Shown here: positions 53,121 to 60,258 of the stretch, piece by piece | How positions within the stretch are numbered: position 1 is the stretch's first letter | Layout: each line of letters begins with the position of its first letter | Assembly (NCBI GenBank): GCA_021819085.1 | Contig: JAKASJ010000005.1 | Span: 1-64,000, forward strand | From: Pseudomonadota bacterium | GTDB lineage: Bacteria; Pseudomonadota; Gammaproteobacteria; Acidiferrobacterales; UBA6901 | Length of the DNA: 64,000 nt | Direction: 5' to 3' | Program-made: the position numbers and the translations under genes | Notes under the pieces: generated by a model | What the model was told of the DNA's origin: nothing | The model's input: the letters and a program-made list of their open reading frames with translations, nothing else | The model's database searches: none

Positions 53121-54287
53121 TCATCCGCCCGGCTTCTCCGGCAACTCGATCTCCGGGCGCCCGATCTCCGGGCGCTCAATGTCGGGACGTTCGATATCGG
53201 GACGTTCGATGTCTGGCCTTTCGTGCGACTCGGGCCGCGTGCTGGCGGCGGGTCGGGGTGCCAGCGGCGACGGAAGATCCACCCGCATCGGATCCGCACG
53301 CAGTACCACCCGGTTTACGAGTACGCTGCCGTCCGGTTCGGCCACGCCGCGCACCGCGATTGCCGTGCCGGCCCGTGCGTCAGCGGCGGTCCCGCCACTG
53401 AAGTGTGTCCGTGCCGTGTAGCGCAGCGGTACACCGTTGGCAAGCAACACATCAGAGCCGGACCGGGCCTCGACGTAGCCCGACATCTCCACCGCCGTGC
53501 CCGGAGCGCCGACGGGGGCGAGGACGGGTTGCACGCGCATCACGACCGGCATGCCTCGCACGTAACGACCCGTGGCCCGCACCTGCTCGCCGATCGCAAT
53601 TCCCGTGAACGGTCCGGAAGCCGCCAGGGTCCGGGTGCCGATGGTCAGATGCCCCTGTGTCCGGTTGATCGCGCGTACGGGTCCGCTCAGCAGGAAGGTC
53701 GTTGCCGGCGCGCGTACTACGCGTGTCGCTACCCAACGCCCGTTGCCGCGGGCCAGCGCGCTGATGCGGACCGCATCGCCGGCGTGAAGCTGTGCCAGTT
53801 CCAGGCGCGGCGCCCCGGGGCCGCCGGTTCGCGTCTCGGCCGTGACGTGAACCACTTGGCCGAGGAGCGTGAAGCTTCCTGCGTGTGTAGTCACCTTTTC
53901 GATGCGTCCGGCGAGTGCGACCCGGACGTGTACCGAGTCGGCGGTCAATCGCCCGTCCGGTTTGGCCTGTGCCTGCACGAGGACCACGTCCCCGAGGTGC
54001 ACATCCCGGACGGTGCCCGGGCGGCCATCAAGGCGATAACCGGTCGTATCGTTGAGTAAGTACTCACTTCCATTGACGTAGATGCTCCCGAAGCGCTGTA
54101 CCACTCCGAAGCTGCTTATCCCGGTACCGCCGATGCCTTCGCGGGTGATTCCCGTACCGCCGATCCCGCCTCCGGACCCCGGGTCGGTGGCGTCTGCCGG
54201 GAGCGGCGCCGCCAGGAGCAACAGGCCAGAGAAAAGCGCGAAAAGCACCCGTCGGCCAATAGGCCCTTTAATAACGCATTTGCTCAT
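53121..54287 (-). CDS. Exported DUF5666 protein with RPD-repeat tail
   Basis: This 388-residue protein has a signal peptide (MSKCVIKGPIGRRVLFALFS to about 33), then GGIGGTGITREGIGGTGI, then several repeats of DUF5666-like beta domains (about 60-330). The last 34 residues are a repeat tail: HERPDIERPDIERPDIERP, EIGRPEIELPEKPGG. DUF5666 is a small OB-like domain of unknown function, common in exported proteins. Start 54287 gives a clean signal peptide; a longer frame has no such signal. It lies four bases downstream of the DUF6502 stop, so the two form an operon. Confidence 0.82.
   Translation of the reverse strand: MSKCVIKGPIGRRVLFALFSGLLLLAAPLPADATDPGSGGGIGGTGITREGIGGTGISSFGVVQRFGSIYVNGSEYLLNDTTGYRLDGRPGTVRDVHLGDVVLVQAQAKPDGRLTADSVHVRVALAGRIEKVTTHAGSFTLLGQVVHVTAETRTGGPGAPRLELAQLHAGDAVRISALARGNGRWVATRVVRAPATTFLLSGPVRAINRTQGHLTIGTRTLAASGPFTGIAIGEQVRATGRYVRGMPVVMRVQPVLAPVGAPGTAVEMSGYVEARSGSDVLLANGVPLRYTARTHFSGGTAADARAGTAIAVRGVAEPDGSVLVNRVVLRADPMRVDLPSPLAPRPAASTRPESHERPDIERPDIERPDIERPEIGRPEIELPEKPGG
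53124..53225 (-). repeat. 15-bp repeats encoding ERPDI
   Basis: Three ERPDI units, then ERPEI and GRPEI, are encoded by degenerate 15-bp repeats. They close with ELPEK. The same closing pattern appears in the small protein at 56160. Confidence 0.85.
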
Positions 54288-54291
54288 GGGG

Positions 54292-55140
54292 TTACTCACG
54301 CCCTCCGCGTCGCGATTCTTTGCCGGGCTCGACCCGGCTTGCTTCTTCGTAGTAGTAGATGCCCAGGCGCATGCGCCGGCAATCTGGACCCGGGGCGGCG
54401 CGCGCCGCCTCATTGAGTGGCATGACACGCTGATTGGCCTCCCTCAGAAACGCTTCGGAGAGCTGTGTAAGCGCCGGGCGTACCGCAGCCAGATCCTCGC
54501 GCGCAATGACCTCGTAGTACACGGCCCGCTCCAGGAAGGCTTCGCCCTGGCCGGAGATATTGTGCAGAGCGCTCGACAGGTGATCGCCTACATTTGCTCC
54601 GAGGAAGGCAAGCTTGTCTTCAGGCAGGGCTGAGACGTAAGCGGTCTTCAGCAGTCGCACTGTGTCGCCCTCGACCGTCGCCACTCCTACCCGCACCAGT
54701 TCTTCGAGAACGACGCTGGGGCGCACGTCTGCCTTGATCGCACGCACGAGGGTTTCGAAACTCACGCGGCTGTTCGCGGCGCGACGCAGCAGCGCCCGGG
54801 GGCGCCCGTCGCGGTCGAGGAAACGGGGCAGGGACACCCAGGCGGCTACCGCGCGCGCGGCCAGGTTCGCCCCGGGGCGCAAAACGTGGGGTTTGGTGCC
54901 GGCGCGCGCCTGTGTCCGCAGGCGCTTCACGTCTTTTCGGTGGATGCCGGTCAGCAGGCTCATACGGCTGTCGGAGACGGTGCCGGGATCCGCACCATCG
55001 TGCTGCTCCGCAGCGCCGATGTACACCTCCTTGAGCGCGTCGCTGAGGGCCGGATAGGTTACGCCCCGACCAATGAGGTAGCGGACGAGGGGGGCGAGGA
55101 TCGCCCGGATGGCGGCCTTCAGTGCAGCGTCCACGATCAT
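54292..55140 (-). CDS. DUF6502-family protein, possible DNA-binding regulator
   Basis: This 282-residue soluble protein matches DUF6502: LVRYLIGRGVTYPALSDALKEV (18-39), RMSLLTGIHRKDVKRLR (59-75) and SRVSFETLVRAI. The N-terminal third looks like a winged helix-turn-helix. I infer that it binds DNA. It has no signal peptide, in contrast to its operon partner. It is divergent from the outer-membrane gene across a 212-base region with two dyads. Function not established. Confidence 0.75.
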   Translation of the reverse strand: MIVDAALKAAIRAILAPLVRYLIGRGVTYPALSDALKEVYIGAAEQHDGADPGTVSDSRMSLLTGIHRKDVKRLRTQARAGTKPHVLRPGANLAARAVAAWVSLPRFLDRDGRPRALLRRAANSRVSFETLVRAIKADVRPSVVLEELVRVGVATVEGDTVRLLKTAYVSALPEDKLAFLGANVGDHLSSALHNISGQGEAFLERAVYYEVIAREDLAAVRPALTQLSEAFLREANQRVMPLNEAARAAPGPDCRRMRLGIYYYEEASRVEPGKESRRGGRE

Positions 55141-55200
55141 ACTCTGATGCCCCCGCCCCGACCGCCCATCGGCCGGTTTAAATCAAGCATAGCATGCCGC

Positions 55201-55257
55201 TTGACCGTGGGAAAAGTTCCCACTAAGATTCGTTCCGCTTGTGGGAAATGTTCCACC
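55201..55257 (+). promoter_or_regulatory. Divergent-locus promoter with two operator dyads
   Basis: TTGACC (-35, 55201-55206) and TAAGAT (-10, 55224-55229) are separated by exactly 17 bases. That spacer is the perfect dyad GTGGGAA-AAG-TTCCCAC. A second, imperfect copy, GTGGGAA-ATG-TTCCACC, covers 55241-55257, beginning about five bases after the expected start. Centre spacing is 34 bp, about three turns. The promoter faces the outer-membrane gene. A regulator bound here should block or remodel it; DUF6502 is the closest candidate. Confidence 0.75.
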
Positions 55258-55352
55258 GCTTAGTAAGGTGGCGGACGGGCGGCGGGGGGTCCGGGGTGCA
55301 GGTTCAGCGTCCGTCCCAGCCGTGTTTCTGAATCGACGACAAGGAGCGATGA

Positions 55353-56129
55353 ATGATCTGCAAGTCCAGTGTGGCCGCAGTGCTTGTGGCCGCGGGTGTG
55401 GTGGGTGCCAGCACGGTGGCACAGGCCGCCGGCAGCACGGTAGTCGGGGTCGCACCGGCATACTACGAGGGCGACTATGGCACCTCTTCGACCACGCAGA
55501 TCTATTATCTGCCGTTTTATGTCAAGTATCAGAAGGACAATCTGACGCTCAAGGCGACGGTGCCGCTACTGTCGGTGCACAGCACCGGTGCGATCCTCTC
55601 CGGGGGTACGGTGGTCGGAAATCGCGGCGCAACCAGGAGTACGACCGAAAGCGGCCTGGGCGACATCTGGCTCGAGGGCCGCTACCGTATCCGCGGTATC
55701 GGCTCTGCCCCCGACATTCTTCCTTATGCCAAGATCAAGCTCGGCACAGCCTCGCGCAGCTCCGGACTCGGTACCGGCGAGAACGACTACGAGGGCGGGG
55801 TCGGGTTCGAGTGGTCAGTGGGCAGGTCGTTGTTCCCGTTTGCCGATGTCGGTTACCGGATTGTCGGCTCGGCTCCCGGGCTGACACTGCAGAATATCTT
55901 GACCTATGACGGCGGAGCCAGCATGCAGCTGGATCGCCAGAACTTTCTGACCGGCATGTTCGCCGGTCACCAATCCGAGCAGCCGGGTTTTCCAGACGCT
56001 GCCGACGCCATCATCGCCTGGAACTATTACCCGCAGCCCGGCCATGGTCTTCAGGTCTACTTCGACAAGGGATTGAGCAATGGAAGCCCGAATTGGGGAG
56101 TCGGAGTAGGTGTGGAACGGCCCTTTTAG
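55353..56129 (+). CDS. Outer-membrane beta-barrel-like protein
   Basis: This 258-residue protein has a signal peptide (MICKSSVAAVLVAAGVVGAS to about 26) and alternating-polarity strands (AYYEGDYG, IYYLPFYVKY, LKATVPLLSV, DIWLEGRYRI, YAKIKLGTASR, GVGFEWSVGR). It ends in VGVGVERPF, an aromatic C-terminus typical of BAM-inserted barrels. The pattern resembles the MetA-pathway/'transporter' family (PF13557), but I cannot assign a substrate. AAGGAG precedes the ATG. It is followed at 30 bases by the RPD-tail gene. Confidence 0.8.
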   Translation: MICKSSVAAVLVAAGVVGASTVAQAAGSTVVGVAPAYYEGDYGTSSTTQIYYLPFYVKYQKDNLTLKATVPLLSVHSTGAILSGGTVVGNRGATRSTTESGLGDIWLEGRYRIRGIGSAPDILPYAKIKLGTASRSSGLGTGENDYEGGVGFEWSVGRSLFPFADVGYRIVGSAPGLTLQNILTYDGGASMQLDRQNFLTGMFAGHQSEQPGFPDAADAIIAWNYYPQPGHGLQVYFDKGLSNGSPNWGVGVGVERPF

Positions 56130-56159
56130 TGGGTGTCAATGAAACAGGAGGACTTTGTC

Positions 56160-56567
56160 ATGAATAGCAGAACTGCATTGTTAGTTGCCTCGGCTCTGGG
56201 GCTGACCCTGGCCTTGGGCGTTGTTGTCCAGGCCGGTGCCACCGATAGCGATACGGATGCGACGACTTCCGCGTCTTCGTCCACCAACGCCGCTACCCCG
56301 GCCATACCCTATCCGGGCCAGGGCGAGAGGGCGACACCGGCCATGCCCGGCAACCCGAGGGCAGAGGAAGAAGTGGAAAGACACCGGCCGGATTTCGATC
56401 ACCGGCCCGATGTCGACCGTCGTCCGGATATCGATCACCGGCCTGATGTCGATCGACCCGATGTCGATCGACCCGATGTCGACCGGCCCGATGTCGACCG
56501 TCCGCAGATCGACCGTCCCGATATCCAGAGGCCGGACATCGAAGTCCCTGAGACCATGGACCGCTGA
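56160..56567 (+). CDS. Small secreted protein with RPD-repeat tail
   Basis: This 135-residue protein has a signal peptide (MNSRTALLVASALGLTLALG to about 27), a low-complexity Thr/Ser/Ala/Pro spacer (28-73), and a tail of RPD repeats (74-130): HRPDFD, HRPDVD, RRPDID, HRPDVD, then four RPDVD/RPQID and RPDIQ, RPDIE. It closes with VPETMDR. The core has no catalytic motif. AGGAGG lies 7 bases upstream of the ATG. A strong terminator follows. It is unlike any protein I recognise. Confidence 0.8.
   Translation: MNSRTALLVASALGLTLALGVVVQAGATDSDTDATTSASSSTNAATPAIPYPGQGERATPAMPGNPRAEEEVERHRPDFDHRPDVDRRPDIDHRPDVDRPDVDRPDVDRPDVDRPQIDRPDIQRPDIEVPETMDR
56379..56549 (+). repeat. 15-bp repeats encoding RPDVD
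   Basis: Near-identical 15-bp units (for example GATGTCGACCGGCCC) encode about eleven RP(D/Q)x(D/E/Q) pentapeptides. The short, near-identical units suggest recent slippage or recombination. Confidence 0.88.
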
Positions 56568-56585
56568 GCCGAACTTGCATCGTCG

Positions 56586-56623
56586 GCCCCTGGGCATGAC
56601 GTGGCCCAGGGGCTTTTTTTTTT
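56586..56623 (+). terminator. Strong terminator of the RPD-tail operon
   Basis: Stem GCCCCTGGGC/GCCCAGGGGC (10 bp), loop ATGACGTG, then ten T. Confidence 0.95.
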
Positions 56624-56782: not shown

Positions 56783-57256
56783 ATGAGCCTTGCGCCCACC
56801 TTGCGGCAGTACCTTGCCGAGCTGGGAATCGGTTACGAGATCCTGGCGCACCAGCGCACGACTTCAAGCCGGGCGACGGCGAATGCGGCCCATGTGCCTG
56901 CGGGCAGTCTCGCGAAGTCAGTCGTCCTGGAGGACGAGCACGGGTTTCTGGTGGCAGTCATTCCGGCCAATTGCCGCCTGGAACTGGGTCAGGTCCACCG
57001 GCTGCTGGACCGGCGGCTCGGTCTCGCGACGGAACGGGCGGCAGCGACGCTGTTCCGGGATTGCGAGGTCGGAGCGATTCCGGCGGTTGGCTGCGCCTAC
57101 GGATTGGAAATGCTGGTGGACGACAGTCTGGTGGATCAGCCCGAAGTGTATATGGAGAGCGGCGACCACCGTGAACTCCTGCATATGAGTAACGGGCAGT
57201 TCCGTCGTCTGTTTTCGACGGCTTGGCACGGGCATATCAGTCACCTCTACCTCTGA
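56783..57256 (+). CDS. YbaK/EbsC-type aminoacyl-tRNA deacylase domain
   Basis: This 157-residue protein resembles the YbaK/ProRS-editing domain: YEILAHQRTTSSRATANAAHVP, SLAKSVVLEDEHGF, VIPANCRLEL and GAIPAVG. Such proteins hydrolyse mischarged tRNA (often Cys- or Ala-tRNA-Pro). The substrate is not readable. GGAGGGG precedes the ATG. It stands alone. Confidence 0.85.
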   Translation: MSLAPTLRQYLAELGIGYEILAHQRTTSSRATANAAHVPAGSLAKSVVLEDEHGFLVAVIPANCRLELGQVHRLLDRRLGLATERAAATLFRDCEVGAIPAVGCAYGLEMLVDDSLVDQPEVYMESGDHRELLHMSNGQFRRLFSTAWHGHISHLYL

Positions 57257-57415
57257 GAGCCGGCGAATCCGGGGTTTTCCCCGCAGAACGCCGGAAATGC
57301 GGCAATCCGTGCGGCCAAGGCCCGCTTCAGGCTATAATTTCCCAGCCTATCTGATTGTTTTGTGCAGGATTCGACCCCAATGAATCCAGCGGTGCCTTTT
57401 TTTTGGAGGATTGTC

Positions 57416-57727
57416 ATGCCGATTTACGAATATCTTTGCCAGGCCTGCGGACACGAGCACGAGGCGATGCAGAAGCTGAGCGAGCCGGTTCTGACCGTGT
57501 GTCCTGCCTGTGGAAAACCGGAACTCAAAAAGCGCATATCGGCTGCCGGATTCCAGCTGAAGGGCAATGGCTGGTACGCAACGGATTTCAAGGGTGGTTC
57601 CGGAAAGAGCAAGGAAGGCGCCGACAAAGGCGACAAGAAGGCGGGCGATGCCGGTTCCGGCACCGATGCCGGTCCTGCCAAGAAGGCCGGCGGCTGTGGC
57701 GGCGGCACCTGCGGCTGTGCCCATTAG
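57416..57727 (+). CDS. FmdB-type zinc-ribbon protein
   Basis: This 103-residue protein has an FmdB-like zinc ribbon (MPIYEYLCQACGHEHEA, CPACG) and a Gly/Lys-rich tail ending CGGGTCGCAH. FmdB-family proteins are suspected regulators; the role is unproven. The ATG at 57416, with TTGGAGG upstream, gives the family start. Confidence 0.9.
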   Translation: MPIYEYLCQACGHEHEAMQKLSEPVLTVCPACGKPELKKRISAAGFQLKGNGWYATDFKGGSGKSKEGADKGDKKAGDAGSGTDAGPAKKAGGCGGGTCGCAH

Positions 57728-57763
57728 CGTTTTTCCGGCCCGGTCGCCCGGGCTGTCCATGGT

Positions 57764-58402
57764 ATGGTCAGACTGCGCCGCTACCTGATTGCCGGACTGC
57801 TGGTTTGGTTGCCGCTGGCGGTCACGGTGGTGCTTATCCGGTTCCTGTTCGAAATCGTCGACCAGACGCTGCAGCTGCTGCCCCCGAAAGTCCAGCCCGA
57901 CCGGCTTCTCGGCTTTCATCTGCCCGGTGTCGGCGCGGTGCTGGTTTTGGCCGTGCTGCTTCTGACCGGAGTGATCGCGACGAATCTCTTCGGGCGCAAC
58001 CTGGTCAGGCTGTGGGAGGAACTTCTGGCGCACATCCCGGTGGTGCGCGCCATCTATTCCGCCGCAAAGCAGCTCACGGAAACCCTTTTCGGCAACTCCG
58101 CCACGTCATTTCGCAAGGTGCTGCTGGTGCAGTATCCCCGAGCCGGCATGTGGACGCTTGCGTTCCTGACAGGGGAGGGCACGCACGAGGTCAACCGGAA
58201 AACCGGCCAAGATCTCGTGCATATCTTCGTGCCGACGACGCCCAATCCCACGGCCGGTTTTTTCCTGATCATGCCGCGCAGCGAAGCCATTGAACTCGAC
58301 ATGAGCGTGGACGCGGGGATCAAGCTCATACTTTCGGCTGGCGCGGTCGGTCCGGACGGCAAAAAGAACGGCGGTAGCGTAGAATCAGACCCCATGCGCT
58401 GA
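57764..58402 (+). CDS. DUF502 membrane protein
   Basis: This 212-residue protein has two membrane segments (about 5-27 and 58-76) and a soluble domain with IPVVRAIYSAAKQLTETLF, YPRAGMWTLAFLTGE and IFVPTTPNPTAGFFL, diagnostic of DUF502. The function is unknown. The DUF502-aspS pair, 66 bases apart, is common in proteobacteria. Confidence 0.92.
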   Translation: MVRLRRYLIAGLLVWLPLAVTVVLIRFLFEIVDQTLQLLPPKVQPDRLLGFHLPGVGAVLVLAVLLLTGVIATNLFGRNLVRLWEELLAHIPVVRAIYSAAKQLTETLFGNSATSFRKVLLVQYPRAGMWTLAFLTGEGTHEVNRKTGQDLVHIFVPTTPNPTAGFFLIMPRSEAIELDMSVDAGIKLILSAGAVGPDGKKNGGSVESDPMR

Positions 58403-58467
58403 GCGCACACAGACCGATGAGCGCCGGCATACCGATTTCTGCCCAGTGATAAGGACCCATACTCAGA

Positions 58468-60258
58468 ATGCGCAGTCATTATTGCGGAAAGCTGGACCTC
58501 AGTCTGACCGGCGAGGTGGTGCAACTTTGCGGCTGGGTGCACAGCCGCCGTGACCACGGGGGCGTCATTTTCATCGATCTGCGCGATCGCGCCGGCATCG
58601 CGCAGATCGTCTTCGATCCTGAGAATAGTGTGGCCTTTTCCGCGGCCGAGGGCGTGCGCAGCGAGTACGTGCTGCGGGTCGAAGGGCAGGTGCGCAGGCG
58701 TCCGCCCGGAACCGAGAATCCGCACCTGCACAGCGGCATGGTCGAGGTGCTGGCCATGCGCCTGGAGGTCCTGAACCGCTCCGAGCCCTTGCCCTTCCAG
58801 CTCGACGAGGCCGAACTCAACGAGAGTGTTCGCCTGAAGTACCGCTATCTCGATCTGCGGCGCGACCACATGCGCCGCAATATACTGCTGCGCCACACTC
58901 TGACCCGGACGCTGCGGCGGTTTCTCGAAGATCACGACTTTGTCGAGATCGAAACGCCGGTGCTTACCAAGTCCACGCCCGAGGGCGCGCGTGATTATCT
59001 GGTGCCGAGCCGCACTCATCCCGGACACTTTTTCGCGTTGCCGCAGTCGCCGCAGCTTTTCAAGCAGCTGTTGATGGTCGCCGGATTCGAGCGTTATTTC
59101 CAGGTAACCCGCTGCTTCCGCGATGAGGATCTGCGTGCGGACCGGCAGCCGGAGTTTACCCAGCTCGACATCGAGACCTCGTTCCTGGACGAGGACGGGA
59201 TCATGCGGCTCATGGAGGAGATGATTCGCACGGCCTTCCGGGCGGTGCTTGCTGTTGAGTTGCCGGACCCCTTTCCGCGCATGACCTACGCCGAGGCGAT
59301 GACGCGCTTTGGCGTCGACCGCCCCGACCTGCGTATCGGACTTGAGCTTGTCGAGGTCGCCGATCTGGTCCGGAATGCTGAATTCAAGGTTTTTGCGCAG
59401 GCCGCCAACAGTCCCGGGGGGCGCGTTGCGGCGCTGCGTCTGCCGCAGGGCGAACGGCTGTCGCGCAAGGATATCGATGACTATACCGCCTATGTGGCCG
59501 GGTTCGGGGCCAAGGGGCTTGCCTATATAAAAGTCAACGACGCCACGCGCGGGCGCGAAGGCTTGCAGTCGCCGATCCTGAAATTCCTTTCTGACGAGAC
59601 ATTGTCTGCGTTGATGGCGCGCTGCCGTGCCGCTACCGGGGATATCATCTTTTTCGGCGCCGACCAGGCCAGGGTGGTGAACGATGCGCTCGGTGCCCTG
59701 CGCATCCGGCTGGGGCACGATCTTGGTCTCGTGGAGCAGGCGTGGAAACCGGTGTGGGTCGTGGATTTTCCGATGTTCGAGTACAACGCCGAAGGCCGGC
59801 GCTGGCAGGCGCTGCATCACCCGTTTACAGCGCCGAAGGAAAGCGACCGGGAGCGCGTCGATATTGATCCGCAGAACGCGCTTTCGCGCGCTTACGACAT
59901 GGTGCTCAACGGGTCGGAAATCGGCGGGGGTTCGATCCGCATCCATCGCGAGGAAGTGCAGGAGAAGGTGTTCGGGCTGCTTGGCATCGGCGCGCAGGAA
60001 GCGCGCGCGAAGTTCGGGTTTCTGCTGGATGCGCTGAAGTTCGGGGCGCCTCCGCATGGCGGTATCGCCTTCGGACTTGACCGCGTTGCCGCCATCATGG
60101 CCGGTGCGGATTCGATTCGCGATGTCATCGCCTTTCCCAAGACACAGAAGGCAACCTGCCTGCTCACCGATGCCCCGAGCGTGGTGGACGAAGCGCAGCT
60201 GCGCGAGCTCCACATCCAGTTGCGCAAGCCTCCGGAGCCGGTGAGCGGTGCAGGCTGA
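58468..60258 (+). CDS. aspS: Aspartyl-tRNA synthetase, likely non-discriminating
   Basis: This 596-residue class II bacterial-type AspRS has an N-terminal OB anticodon domain, motif 2 ([18 protein letters not shown]), the GAD insertion and motif 3 (GIAFGLDR). It charges tRNA-Asp. His30 and Gly81 lie at the positions that are Leu and Lys in E. coli; from memory, His/Gly there marks non-discriminating AspRS in Pseudomonas aeruginosa, which also aspartylates tRNA-Asn. Its end overlaps nudB. Confidence 0.97.

What the first reader, a model, noticed from the sequence alone, without database searches (positions are those of the whole stretch)
53121..56567. Four-gene envelope locus: DUF6502 + DUF5666 / beta-barrel + RPD-tail protein
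Seen: a leftward pair (DUF6502, then an exported DUF5666 protein) is divergent from a rightward pair (outer-membrane-like barrel, then a small secreted protein), with one operator-laden promoter between them. Three of the four products are exported. Inference: this is one regulated envelope system, with DUF6502 as the cytoplasmic regulator and the two repeat-tailed proteins acting at or on the outer membrane. None has an assigned function that I know of. This is my best candidate for an undescribed system.
Basis: partly seen in the sequence, partly recalled or inferred. Interest (0 to 1): 0.8.

Follow-up and report, generated by a model that had tools for sequence, protein, structure and literature searches.

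The report
Regulated surface-protein cassette with own operator
Four neighbouring genes (a DNA-binding switch of an unstudied family, an outer-membrane channel and two exported proteins with matching repeat tails) form one conserved cell-surface system in many Proteobacteria, all behind the same 17-base switch site, although what the system does for the cell is still unknown.

Summary
DUF5666 lies immediately downstream of DUF6502 in 86 of 92 testable loci, and a barrel homologue lies within 5 kb in 55 of 79, across Gamma-, Beta-, Alpha- and Deltaproteobacteria. Gene order varies, including one four-gene co-directional operon. DUF6502 is predicted to carry two helix-turn-helix domains. A 17-bp palindrome, GTGGGAANNNTTCCCAC, exactly fills the spacer of a sigma-70 promoter in front of the barrel. 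It is unique in this genome. Across 96 genomes the exact site occurs 20 times, only in DUF6502 carriers: 18 sites are at DUF6502 loci, and the other two lie directly in front of the repeat-tail gene missing from those loci. Regulators with a changed recognition helix have a changed operator. The repeat tails of DUF5666 and the small protein match locus by locus (RPEI, TPEV, VPSVQ), even in dereplicated loci (p = 5e-5). DUF5666 is predicted to be a string of OB/CusF-like barrels. The channel is a distant COG4313/FapF relative without FapF's coiled coil. Best reading: DUF6502 represses a surface cassette whose barrel delivers or anchors the tailed proteins. Regulation is well supported; the transport role is inference. 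I found no paper mentioning DUF6502.

The parts
54292..55140 (-). DUF6502 protein (282 aa): predicted one-component DNA-binding regulator with two helix-turn-helix domains and a helical C-terminal domain
   Evidence: PF20112 1.8e-23; AF2 pLDDT 89; residues 28-87 and 87-169 align to HTH/winged-helix regulators
53121..54287 (-). DUF5666 protein (388 aa): signal segment, GIGGTG motifs, four small beta domains, RPDI repeat tail; 4 nt downstream of DUF6502
   Evidence: PF18914 6e-23; AF2 pLDDT 79.6 with domains at 57-123, 126-193, 198-255, 266-330; CusF/SilF/PilY2-like OB barrels
53121..53222 (-). C-terminal repeat tail of the DUF5666 protein (ERPDIERPDIERPDIERPEIGRPEIELPEKPGG)
   Evidence: translation; in this genome the repeat pattern occurs only here and in the RPD gene
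55353..56129 (+). Outer-membrane-like beta-barrel (258 aa, signal peptide plus about 232 aa), distant COG4313/FapF superfamily
   Evidence: 22 of 40 family members match PF13557; profile matches FapF structures at 1.4e-5
56160..56567 (+). Small exported protein (135 aa) with NAATPA...ATPAMPGNP motif and RPDV repeat tail
   Evidence: translation; relatives next to barrel or operator
56385..56567 (+). RPD pentapeptide-like repeat tail of the small protein
   Evidence: translation
55207..55223 (.). Operator O1, perfect palindrome GTGGGAAAAGTTCCCAC; only exact copy in the genome
55241..55257 (.). Operator O2, imperfect (12 of 14); perfect in two of the nearest relatives (G033, G003)
55201..55229 (+). 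Sigma-70-type promoter TTGACC-17 bp-TAAGAT whose spacer is exactly O1; reads towards barrel and RPD genes
56585..56614 (+). Intrinsic terminator after the RPD gene, followed by a run of T

Best explanation
This is a dedicated, locally regulated cell-surface cassette. (1) DUF6502 is a one-component transcription regulator. Its first helix-turn-helix (recognition helix around residues 68-80, IHRKDVKRLR) binds the palindrome GTGGGAANNNTTCCCAC. Because the palindrome fills the spacer between the -35 and -10 hexamers of the barrel promoter, binding most likely blocks RNA polymerase (repression). The site lies 67-83 bp upstream of DUF6502's own start, so autoregulation of the DUF6502-DUF5666 arm is likely. 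(2) When an unknown signal, probably sensed by the helical C-terminal domain, releases DUF6502, three exported proteins are made: a channel-type outer-membrane barrel, a small repeat-tailed protein, and a string of four OB/CusF-like domains (DUF5666) with a tail of the same repeat type. (3) The two tailed proteins act together, either by recognising the same partner or by co-assembling, most likely with the barrel as their outer-membrane export or anchoring point, in the way FapF serves Fap subunits. Step 1's DNA-binding part is well supported computationally; repression and autoregulation are inferred from promoter geometry; step 3's partnership of the tails is supported by locus-matched repeats; the export/anchor role of the barrel is inference (about 0.35 on its own).
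For: Linkage: DUF6502 and DUF5666 co-occur in 36 of 96 genomes with only 5 and 3 discordant (Fisher 1.7e-17), DUF5666 is immediately downstream in 86/92 and a barrel within 5 kb in 55/79 (loci). Gene orders differ (divergent; barrel convergent after DUF5666; L101 with all four genes in one direction behind one operator), so linkage is not just recent shared ancestry. Operator: palindrome score of at least 10/12 upstream of DUF6502 in 77/96 loci versus 4/96 shuffled. Exact site 20 times in 96 genomes, only in DUF6502 carriers (15/41 versus 0/55, Fisher 4.8e-7; control pattern 2 hits). The two sites lying neither at nor beside a DUF6502 locus are each within about 100 bp of a NAATPA/RPD gene. 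Helix-operator covariation: H-type helix with the N3 site in 63 cases, S/T-type with TTGGGAANNNNTTCCCAA in 6, no crossing. Held-out plasmid loci in Methylocystis, Azospirillum and Microvirga carry it upstream of DUF6502 (14/14 in Azospirillum). Orphan barrels have no such site (5/5). Tails: within-locus similarity exceeds permutations (p = 5e-5, also after dereplication to 14 loci). Barrel: FapF is the only family of solved structures matched.
Against: No expression, binding or secretion data exist. The barrel lacks FapF's coiled coil and plug region, and COG4313 channels with known function take up hydrophobic molecules (PMC4493636, PMC9581022). A small repeat protein was recognised in only about 24 of 55 barrel loci, and 24 of 79 DUF6502 loci have no barrel homologue. 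In Nitrosomonas, Methylococcales and others the operator drives different genes (beta-propellers, flavocytochrome c sulfide dehydrogenase, MauG-like, glycosyltransferase), so the regulator is not tied to one biochemical function. Tail matching could partly come from sequence exchange between neighbouring repeats. The closest fold match of DUF6502, HetR, is weak.
Confidence: 0.55

Rival explanations
1. The barrel is an uptake channel for a hydrophobic or amphipathic small molecule, as in COG4313 (TcpY, SphA), with DUF5666 and the repeat protein as periplasmic or surface binding partners, and DUF6502 as the regulator sensing that molecule.
For: 22 of 40 barrel relatives match PF13557; characterised COG4313 members take up hydrophobic molecules (PMC4493636, PMC9581022); a divergently encoded one-component regulator is the usual layout for catabolic uptake.
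Against: No catabolic enzyme recurs next to the locus: the only clusters present in many loci are DUF6502, DUF5666 and the barrel, besides opposite-strand shadow ORFs and generic domains. The usual PTG motif is replaced (GTAS). Matched repeat tails on two exported proteins are not explained by uptake.
Confidence: 0.22
2. The cassette builds an extracellular matrix or fibre: the small repeat proteins are the polymerising subunits (some are Q/N-rich), the barrel is the exporter and DUF5666 a nucleator or anchor; a functional analogue of Fap/curli.
For: FapF is the best structural-sequence match of the barrel; the small protein in L154 has QYQTQTQTKTEAQVQNK repeats next to the barrel behind the operator, and L110/L111/L116 have Q/N-rich secreted proteins behind the operator; glycosyltransferases lie behind or near the operator in Acidithiobacillus and Methylocystis.
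Against: The RPDV/TPEV tails are charged and proline-rich, unlike amyloid cores; no C39 protease (FapD) or other fap gene recurs nearby.
Confidence: 0.2
3. Only DUF6502-DUF5666 is a true unit; the barrel and RPD genes are neighbours that were captured by the operator in some lineages and have a separate function.
For: Barrel homologues also occur without DUF6502 (G023, G029, G051, G089; a second copy in this genome), and one orphan pair barrel + RPD-like protein has no DUF6502 nearby (L082); 24 of 79 loci lack a barrel.
Against: Barrel linkage persists through rearranged gene orders and in four classes; the operator is found at barrels lying apart (L143, L157) and at RPD genes on other contigs; tails of DUF5666 and RPD match within loci.
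Confidence: 0.2
4. The palindrome is bound by another regulator and DUF6502 has a non-DNA role.
For: No direct binding data; DUF6502 has no detectable sequence match to a solved regulator.
Against: Exact sites occur only in DUF6502 genomes; operator spacing switches with the DUF6502 recognition helix; predicted HTH domains.
Confidence: 0.05

Closest known systems
Fap functional-amyloid system of Pseudomonas, FapF exporter (PMC5557850, PMC6173800)
   Same: A COG4313-like/12-stranded outer-membrane barrel encoded with small secreted repeat proteins; the barrel profile matches FapF at 1.4e-5.
   Different: No N-terminal coiled coil or plug, no FapA-E genes, different repeats, plus DUF5666 and a dedicated DUF6502 regulator with its own operator.
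COG4313 / Phenol_MetA_deg outer-membrane channels (Pput2725, TcpY, SphA; PMC4493636)
   Same: Distant sequence membership (22/40 relatives match PF13557); conserved GLGD and GLGTG segments.
   Different: The window protein itself is below Pfam detection; PTG replaced by GTAS; linked to repeat-tail proteins rather than catabolic genes.
One-component winged-helix/HTH repressors with an operator in the promoter spacer (general kind; HetR is the top Foldseek hit)
   Same: Palindrome-binding, divergently encoded next to its target; HTH domains align to IclR, Rrf2/NsrR, MarR and HetR structures.
   Different: A separate family (PF20112) with no sequence match to these; overall similarity to HetR is weak (TM 0.34).
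CusF/SilF and PilY2 small OB-like periplasmic proteins
   Same: Single DUF5666 domains superpose on CusF (Z 9.2, 61 residues, 2.0 A).
   Different: Four domains in a row with GIGGTG motifs and a repeat tail; no conserved metal-ligand pattern seen in the alignment (by inspection).

Membership tests
Pfam DUF6502 (PF20112) | whole-protein score above the curated cut-off | tested here: met
   83.2 bits versus cut-off 27
Pfam DUF5666 (PF18914) | score above the curated cut-off | tested here: met
   81.3 bits versus cut-off 27, three stretches
COG4313 / Phenol_MetA_deg (PF13557) | profile match | tested here: inconclusive
   P0003 itself has no match at E<=1; 22 of 40 homologues match, best 3.6e-11
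COG4313 / Phenol_MetA_deg (PF13557) | PTG motif at the extracellular loop (as described in PMC6173800) | tested here: not met
   the alignment shows GTASxSxGLGTG at the likely equivalent place; motif equivalence is my reading
COG4313 / Phenol_MetA_deg (PF13557) | 12-stranded barrel with inserted N-terminus | not tested
   no structure prediction of the barrel was run (both jobs used on DUF6502 and DUF5666)
FapF amyloid exporter | N-terminal coiled coil, linker and plug before the barrel | tested here: not met
   mature protein is about 232 aa and its first strand begins right after the signal peptide; FapF-beta alone is 324 aa (PMC5557850)
FapF amyloid exporter | encoded in a fapA-F operon with FapD C39 protease | tested here: not met
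   no such recurrent neighbour in the clustered neighbourhoods
HetR-type regulator | HetR fold over the whole protein | tested here: inconclusive
   Foldseek E 0.0086, TM 0.34; VIA Z 7.2 at 11.6 A, tied with unrelated rows; no sequence match
One-component HTH regulator (kind) | HTH domain plus cognate palindromic operator | tested here: met
   predicted HTH domains; operator conserved and covarying with the recognition helix; binding itself not tested
CusF metal-binding OB proteins | metal-ligand residues in the OB barrel | tested here: not met
   fold similarity only; no conserved His/Met/Trp cluster in alignment A4 (by inspection)

The most novel reading that the evidence does not exclude
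A previously undescribed surface-delivery system in which a COG4313-type outer-membrane channel exports or anchors proteins recognised by short proline-centred repeat tails (XPXVX), under a new family of one-component regulators (DUF6502); the tails co-diversify because they are the sorting or assembly signal.
Probability: 0.3. Interest if true: 0.85.

Novelty: new variant of a known kind. Interest (0 to 1): 0.64.

Why it matters
It gives a testable function to two large uncharacterised families. DUF6502 becomes a regulator family with a named operator, from which the regulon can be read in any genome; this worked blind here, as the operator alone found the missing repeat-protein genes on other contigs. 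It also shows that a class of outer-membrane channels thought to take up small molecules is repeatedly encoded with exported repeat proteins, which makes a protein-delivery role directly testable, in bacteria that include acidophiles, ammonia oxidisers and plant symbionts.

Tried and rejected
Rfam search of the region: nothing. NCBIfam: nothing. The Ad_Cy_reg hit (E 0.0066) was seen in only 1 of 63 DUF6502 members and dropped. Extensin and cytadhesin hits of the RPD protein are low-complexity matches below cut-off. The second loose palindrome in this genome (C27:4438, two-base gap) lacks the flanking G and C and was not treated as a regulon site. Orphan barrel paralogue in this genome (C17): no operator. 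A sequence profile of DUF6502 against the PDB gave only chance-level hits. DUF5666 profile against the PDB: nothing significant. No DUF6502 in phage records. No paper mentions DUF6502; four mention DUF5666, of which the three I opened give no function. An automatic scan reported small repeat proteins in 27 of 55 barrel loci, but several were wrong-frame ORFs or other proteins; my curated count, adding those found by similarity, is 24.
Full report
What is there. DUF6502 and DUF5666 are read leftwards, 4 nt apart; the barrel and the small RPD-tail protein are read rightwards and end in a strong terminator. Between them lies TTGACC-GTGGGAAAAGTTCCCAC-TAAGAT: a perfect 17-bp palindrome that is exactly the spacer of a sigma-70 promoter facing the barrel. 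A second, imperfect copy follows; it is perfect in two of the nearest relatives. In the 3.42-Mb genome the exact palindrome occurs once, there is no one-mismatch copy, and the number of looser copies equals that of the reversed control pattern.

Linkage. In 96 relatives, DUF6502 occurs in 41 genomes and DUF5666 in 39, together in 36. Adding 79 loci from a scan of 84,980 species genomes with a DUF6502 alignment, DUF5666 is immediately downstream on the same strand in 86 of 92 testable loci, and a barrel homologue lies within 5 kb in 55 of 79. No other gene recurs at a comparable rate apart from opposite-strand shadow ORFs and generic domains. The order is not fixed: divergent in the own genus, RPD divergent and barrel convergent in family f4, barrel downstream of DUF5666 in Nitrosomonas, and all four genes in one direction behind one operator in L101. 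The loci include Gamma-, Beta-, Alpha- and Deltaproteobacteria.

The regulator. AlphaFold2 on 63 aligned DUF6502 sequences gives pLDDT 89. Residues 28-87 and 87-169 align to helix-turn-helix and winged-helix regulators; the top Foldseek hit is HetR bound to DNA (E 0.0086), but the whole-chain superposition is poor, so I claim only the domains, not HetR membership. A palindrome matching at least 10 of 12 positions lies upstream of DUF6502 in 77 of 96 loci against 4 of 96 shuffled regions. Loci whose recognition helix reads TGIHRK have the N3 site (63 of 63 with a site); those reading TGLSRK or TGLTRK have TTGGGAANNNNTTCCCAA (6 of 6); none cross over. These loci are related to each other, so the counts are not independent events. 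Independent plasmid loci in Azospirillum (14/14 match), Microvirga (13/14, two sites) and Methylocystis (12/14, three sites) carry the site upstream of DUF6502; in Rhizobium leguminosarum the only site lies downstream of DUF5666.

A blind test. The exact N3 site was searched in all 96 genomes. It occurs 20 times, in 15 genomes, all DUF6502 carriers (Fisher 4.8e-7); the control pattern occurs twice. By position 17 sites are at DUF6502 loci, and one more (G039:C28) is the broken-off flank of such a locus, recognised by a shared neighbouring gene. The remaining two (G035:C60, G039:C99) each lie less than about 100 bp in front of a gene for a small exported protein with the NAATPA motif, the component missing from the DUF6502 loci of those genomes. 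The N4 site likewise led to a stand-alone DUF5666 lipoprotein (G077) and a beta-propeller lipoprotein (G065); its association with DUF6502 genomes alone is only suggestive (p = 0.07).

The exported proteins. DUF5666 is modelled as four small beta domains between a disordered GIGGTG segment and a disordered repeat tail (pLDDT 79.6). Single domains superpose on CusF, SilF and PilY2 (Z about 9, 61 residues, 2.0 A), without an obvious metal site. The barrel family matches Phenol_MetA_deg in 22 of 40 members and, among solved structures, FapF (1.4e-5). It lacks FapF's coiled coil and plug, so it is not FapF. The small proteins share a signal peptide, often an NAATPA...PGNP motif, and a tail of short repeats whose type varies: RPDV, TPEV, VPSVQ, DRPER, or Q/N-rich. 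In 20 loci with both proteins, the repeat type of the small protein resembles that of the DUF5666 tail of the same locus more than of other loci (p = 5e-5, also with 14 dereplicated loci). In this genome the RPD repeat pattern is found only in these two genes.

Where the picture is incomplete. The operator-bearing promoter points away from DUF6502 to different extracytoplasmic proteins in other lineages: YncE-like propellers in Nitrosomonas and others, a cytochrome and flavocytochrome c sulfide dehydrogenase in Methylococcales, a MauG-like cytochrome, a glycosyltransferase in Acidithiobacillus. In Methylocystis a barrel of another Pfam family has two 12/14 sites in front of it. So the constant part is DUF6502 + DUF5666 + the operator, and the surface cargo varies. 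Five barrel homologues without DUF6502 nearby have no operator.

Mechanism. A palindrome filling a 16-17 bp promoter spacer is the geometry of a repressor site; I infer repression relieved by an unknown signal. The matched tails argue that DUF5666 and the small protein share a partner or assemble together; the barrel as exporter or anchor is the simplest way to join the three, by analogy with FapF, but uptake of hydrophobic molecules, the known role of COG4313 channels (PMC4493636), is not excluded. Nothing here has been shown by experiment.

Noticed in passing
G000:C17:1700-2473 (L043:1694-2506): A second barrel gene in this genome, 58% identical, without DUF6502, DUF5666 or operator nearby.
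   Followed up: partly
L082:7839-9036: Barrel plus NAATPA-type repeat protein as a pair with no DUF6502 nearby, so the pair can exist without the regulator.
   Followed up: partly
L127:7667-9487, L137, L153, L159 (Nitrosomonas): The operator promoter divergent from DUF6502 drives a roughly 607-aa exported protein with a cupredoxin-like N-terminus (by eye) and a YncE-like beta-propeller.
   Followed up: partly
L148:7808-9829 and L161 (Methylococcales): Cytochrome c and flavocytochrome c sulfide dehydrogenase genes directly behind operator-like sites next to DUF6502.
   Followed up: partly
L177:8992-9932 (Methylocystis plasmid): Two operator-like sites in front of an unrelated outer-membrane barrel (OMP_b-brl), as if one barrel type had replaced another.
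   Followed up: partly
L154 (record titled Flavobacteriales MAG): A proteobacterial-type locus whose small protein has Q/N-rich 16-residue repeats resembling amyloid subunits; possible mis-binning or transfer.
   Followed up: no
G033:C99:1-4455 (L045): A locus about 92% identical to the window's, in a genome of another family that also has its own 54% copy; transfer or contamination.
   Followed up: no
L090:7553-13154 (Acidithiobacillus ferriphilus): Two DUF6502-DUF5666 pairs in tandem, no barrel within the fetched DNA.
   Followed up: no
plasmid records, mostly Rhizobium (75 records): DUF6502 is common on large, often conjugative plasmids of plant-associated Alphaproteobacteria.
   Followed up: partly
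window 56783-60258: Downstream neighbours look ordinary by inspection: YbaK-like protein, FmdB-type zinc ribbon, a DUF502-like membrane protein, aspartyl-tRNA synthetase.
   Followed up: no
PMC13255231: A machine-learning study lists DUF5666 among protein families informative for bacterial growth pH.
   Followed up: no
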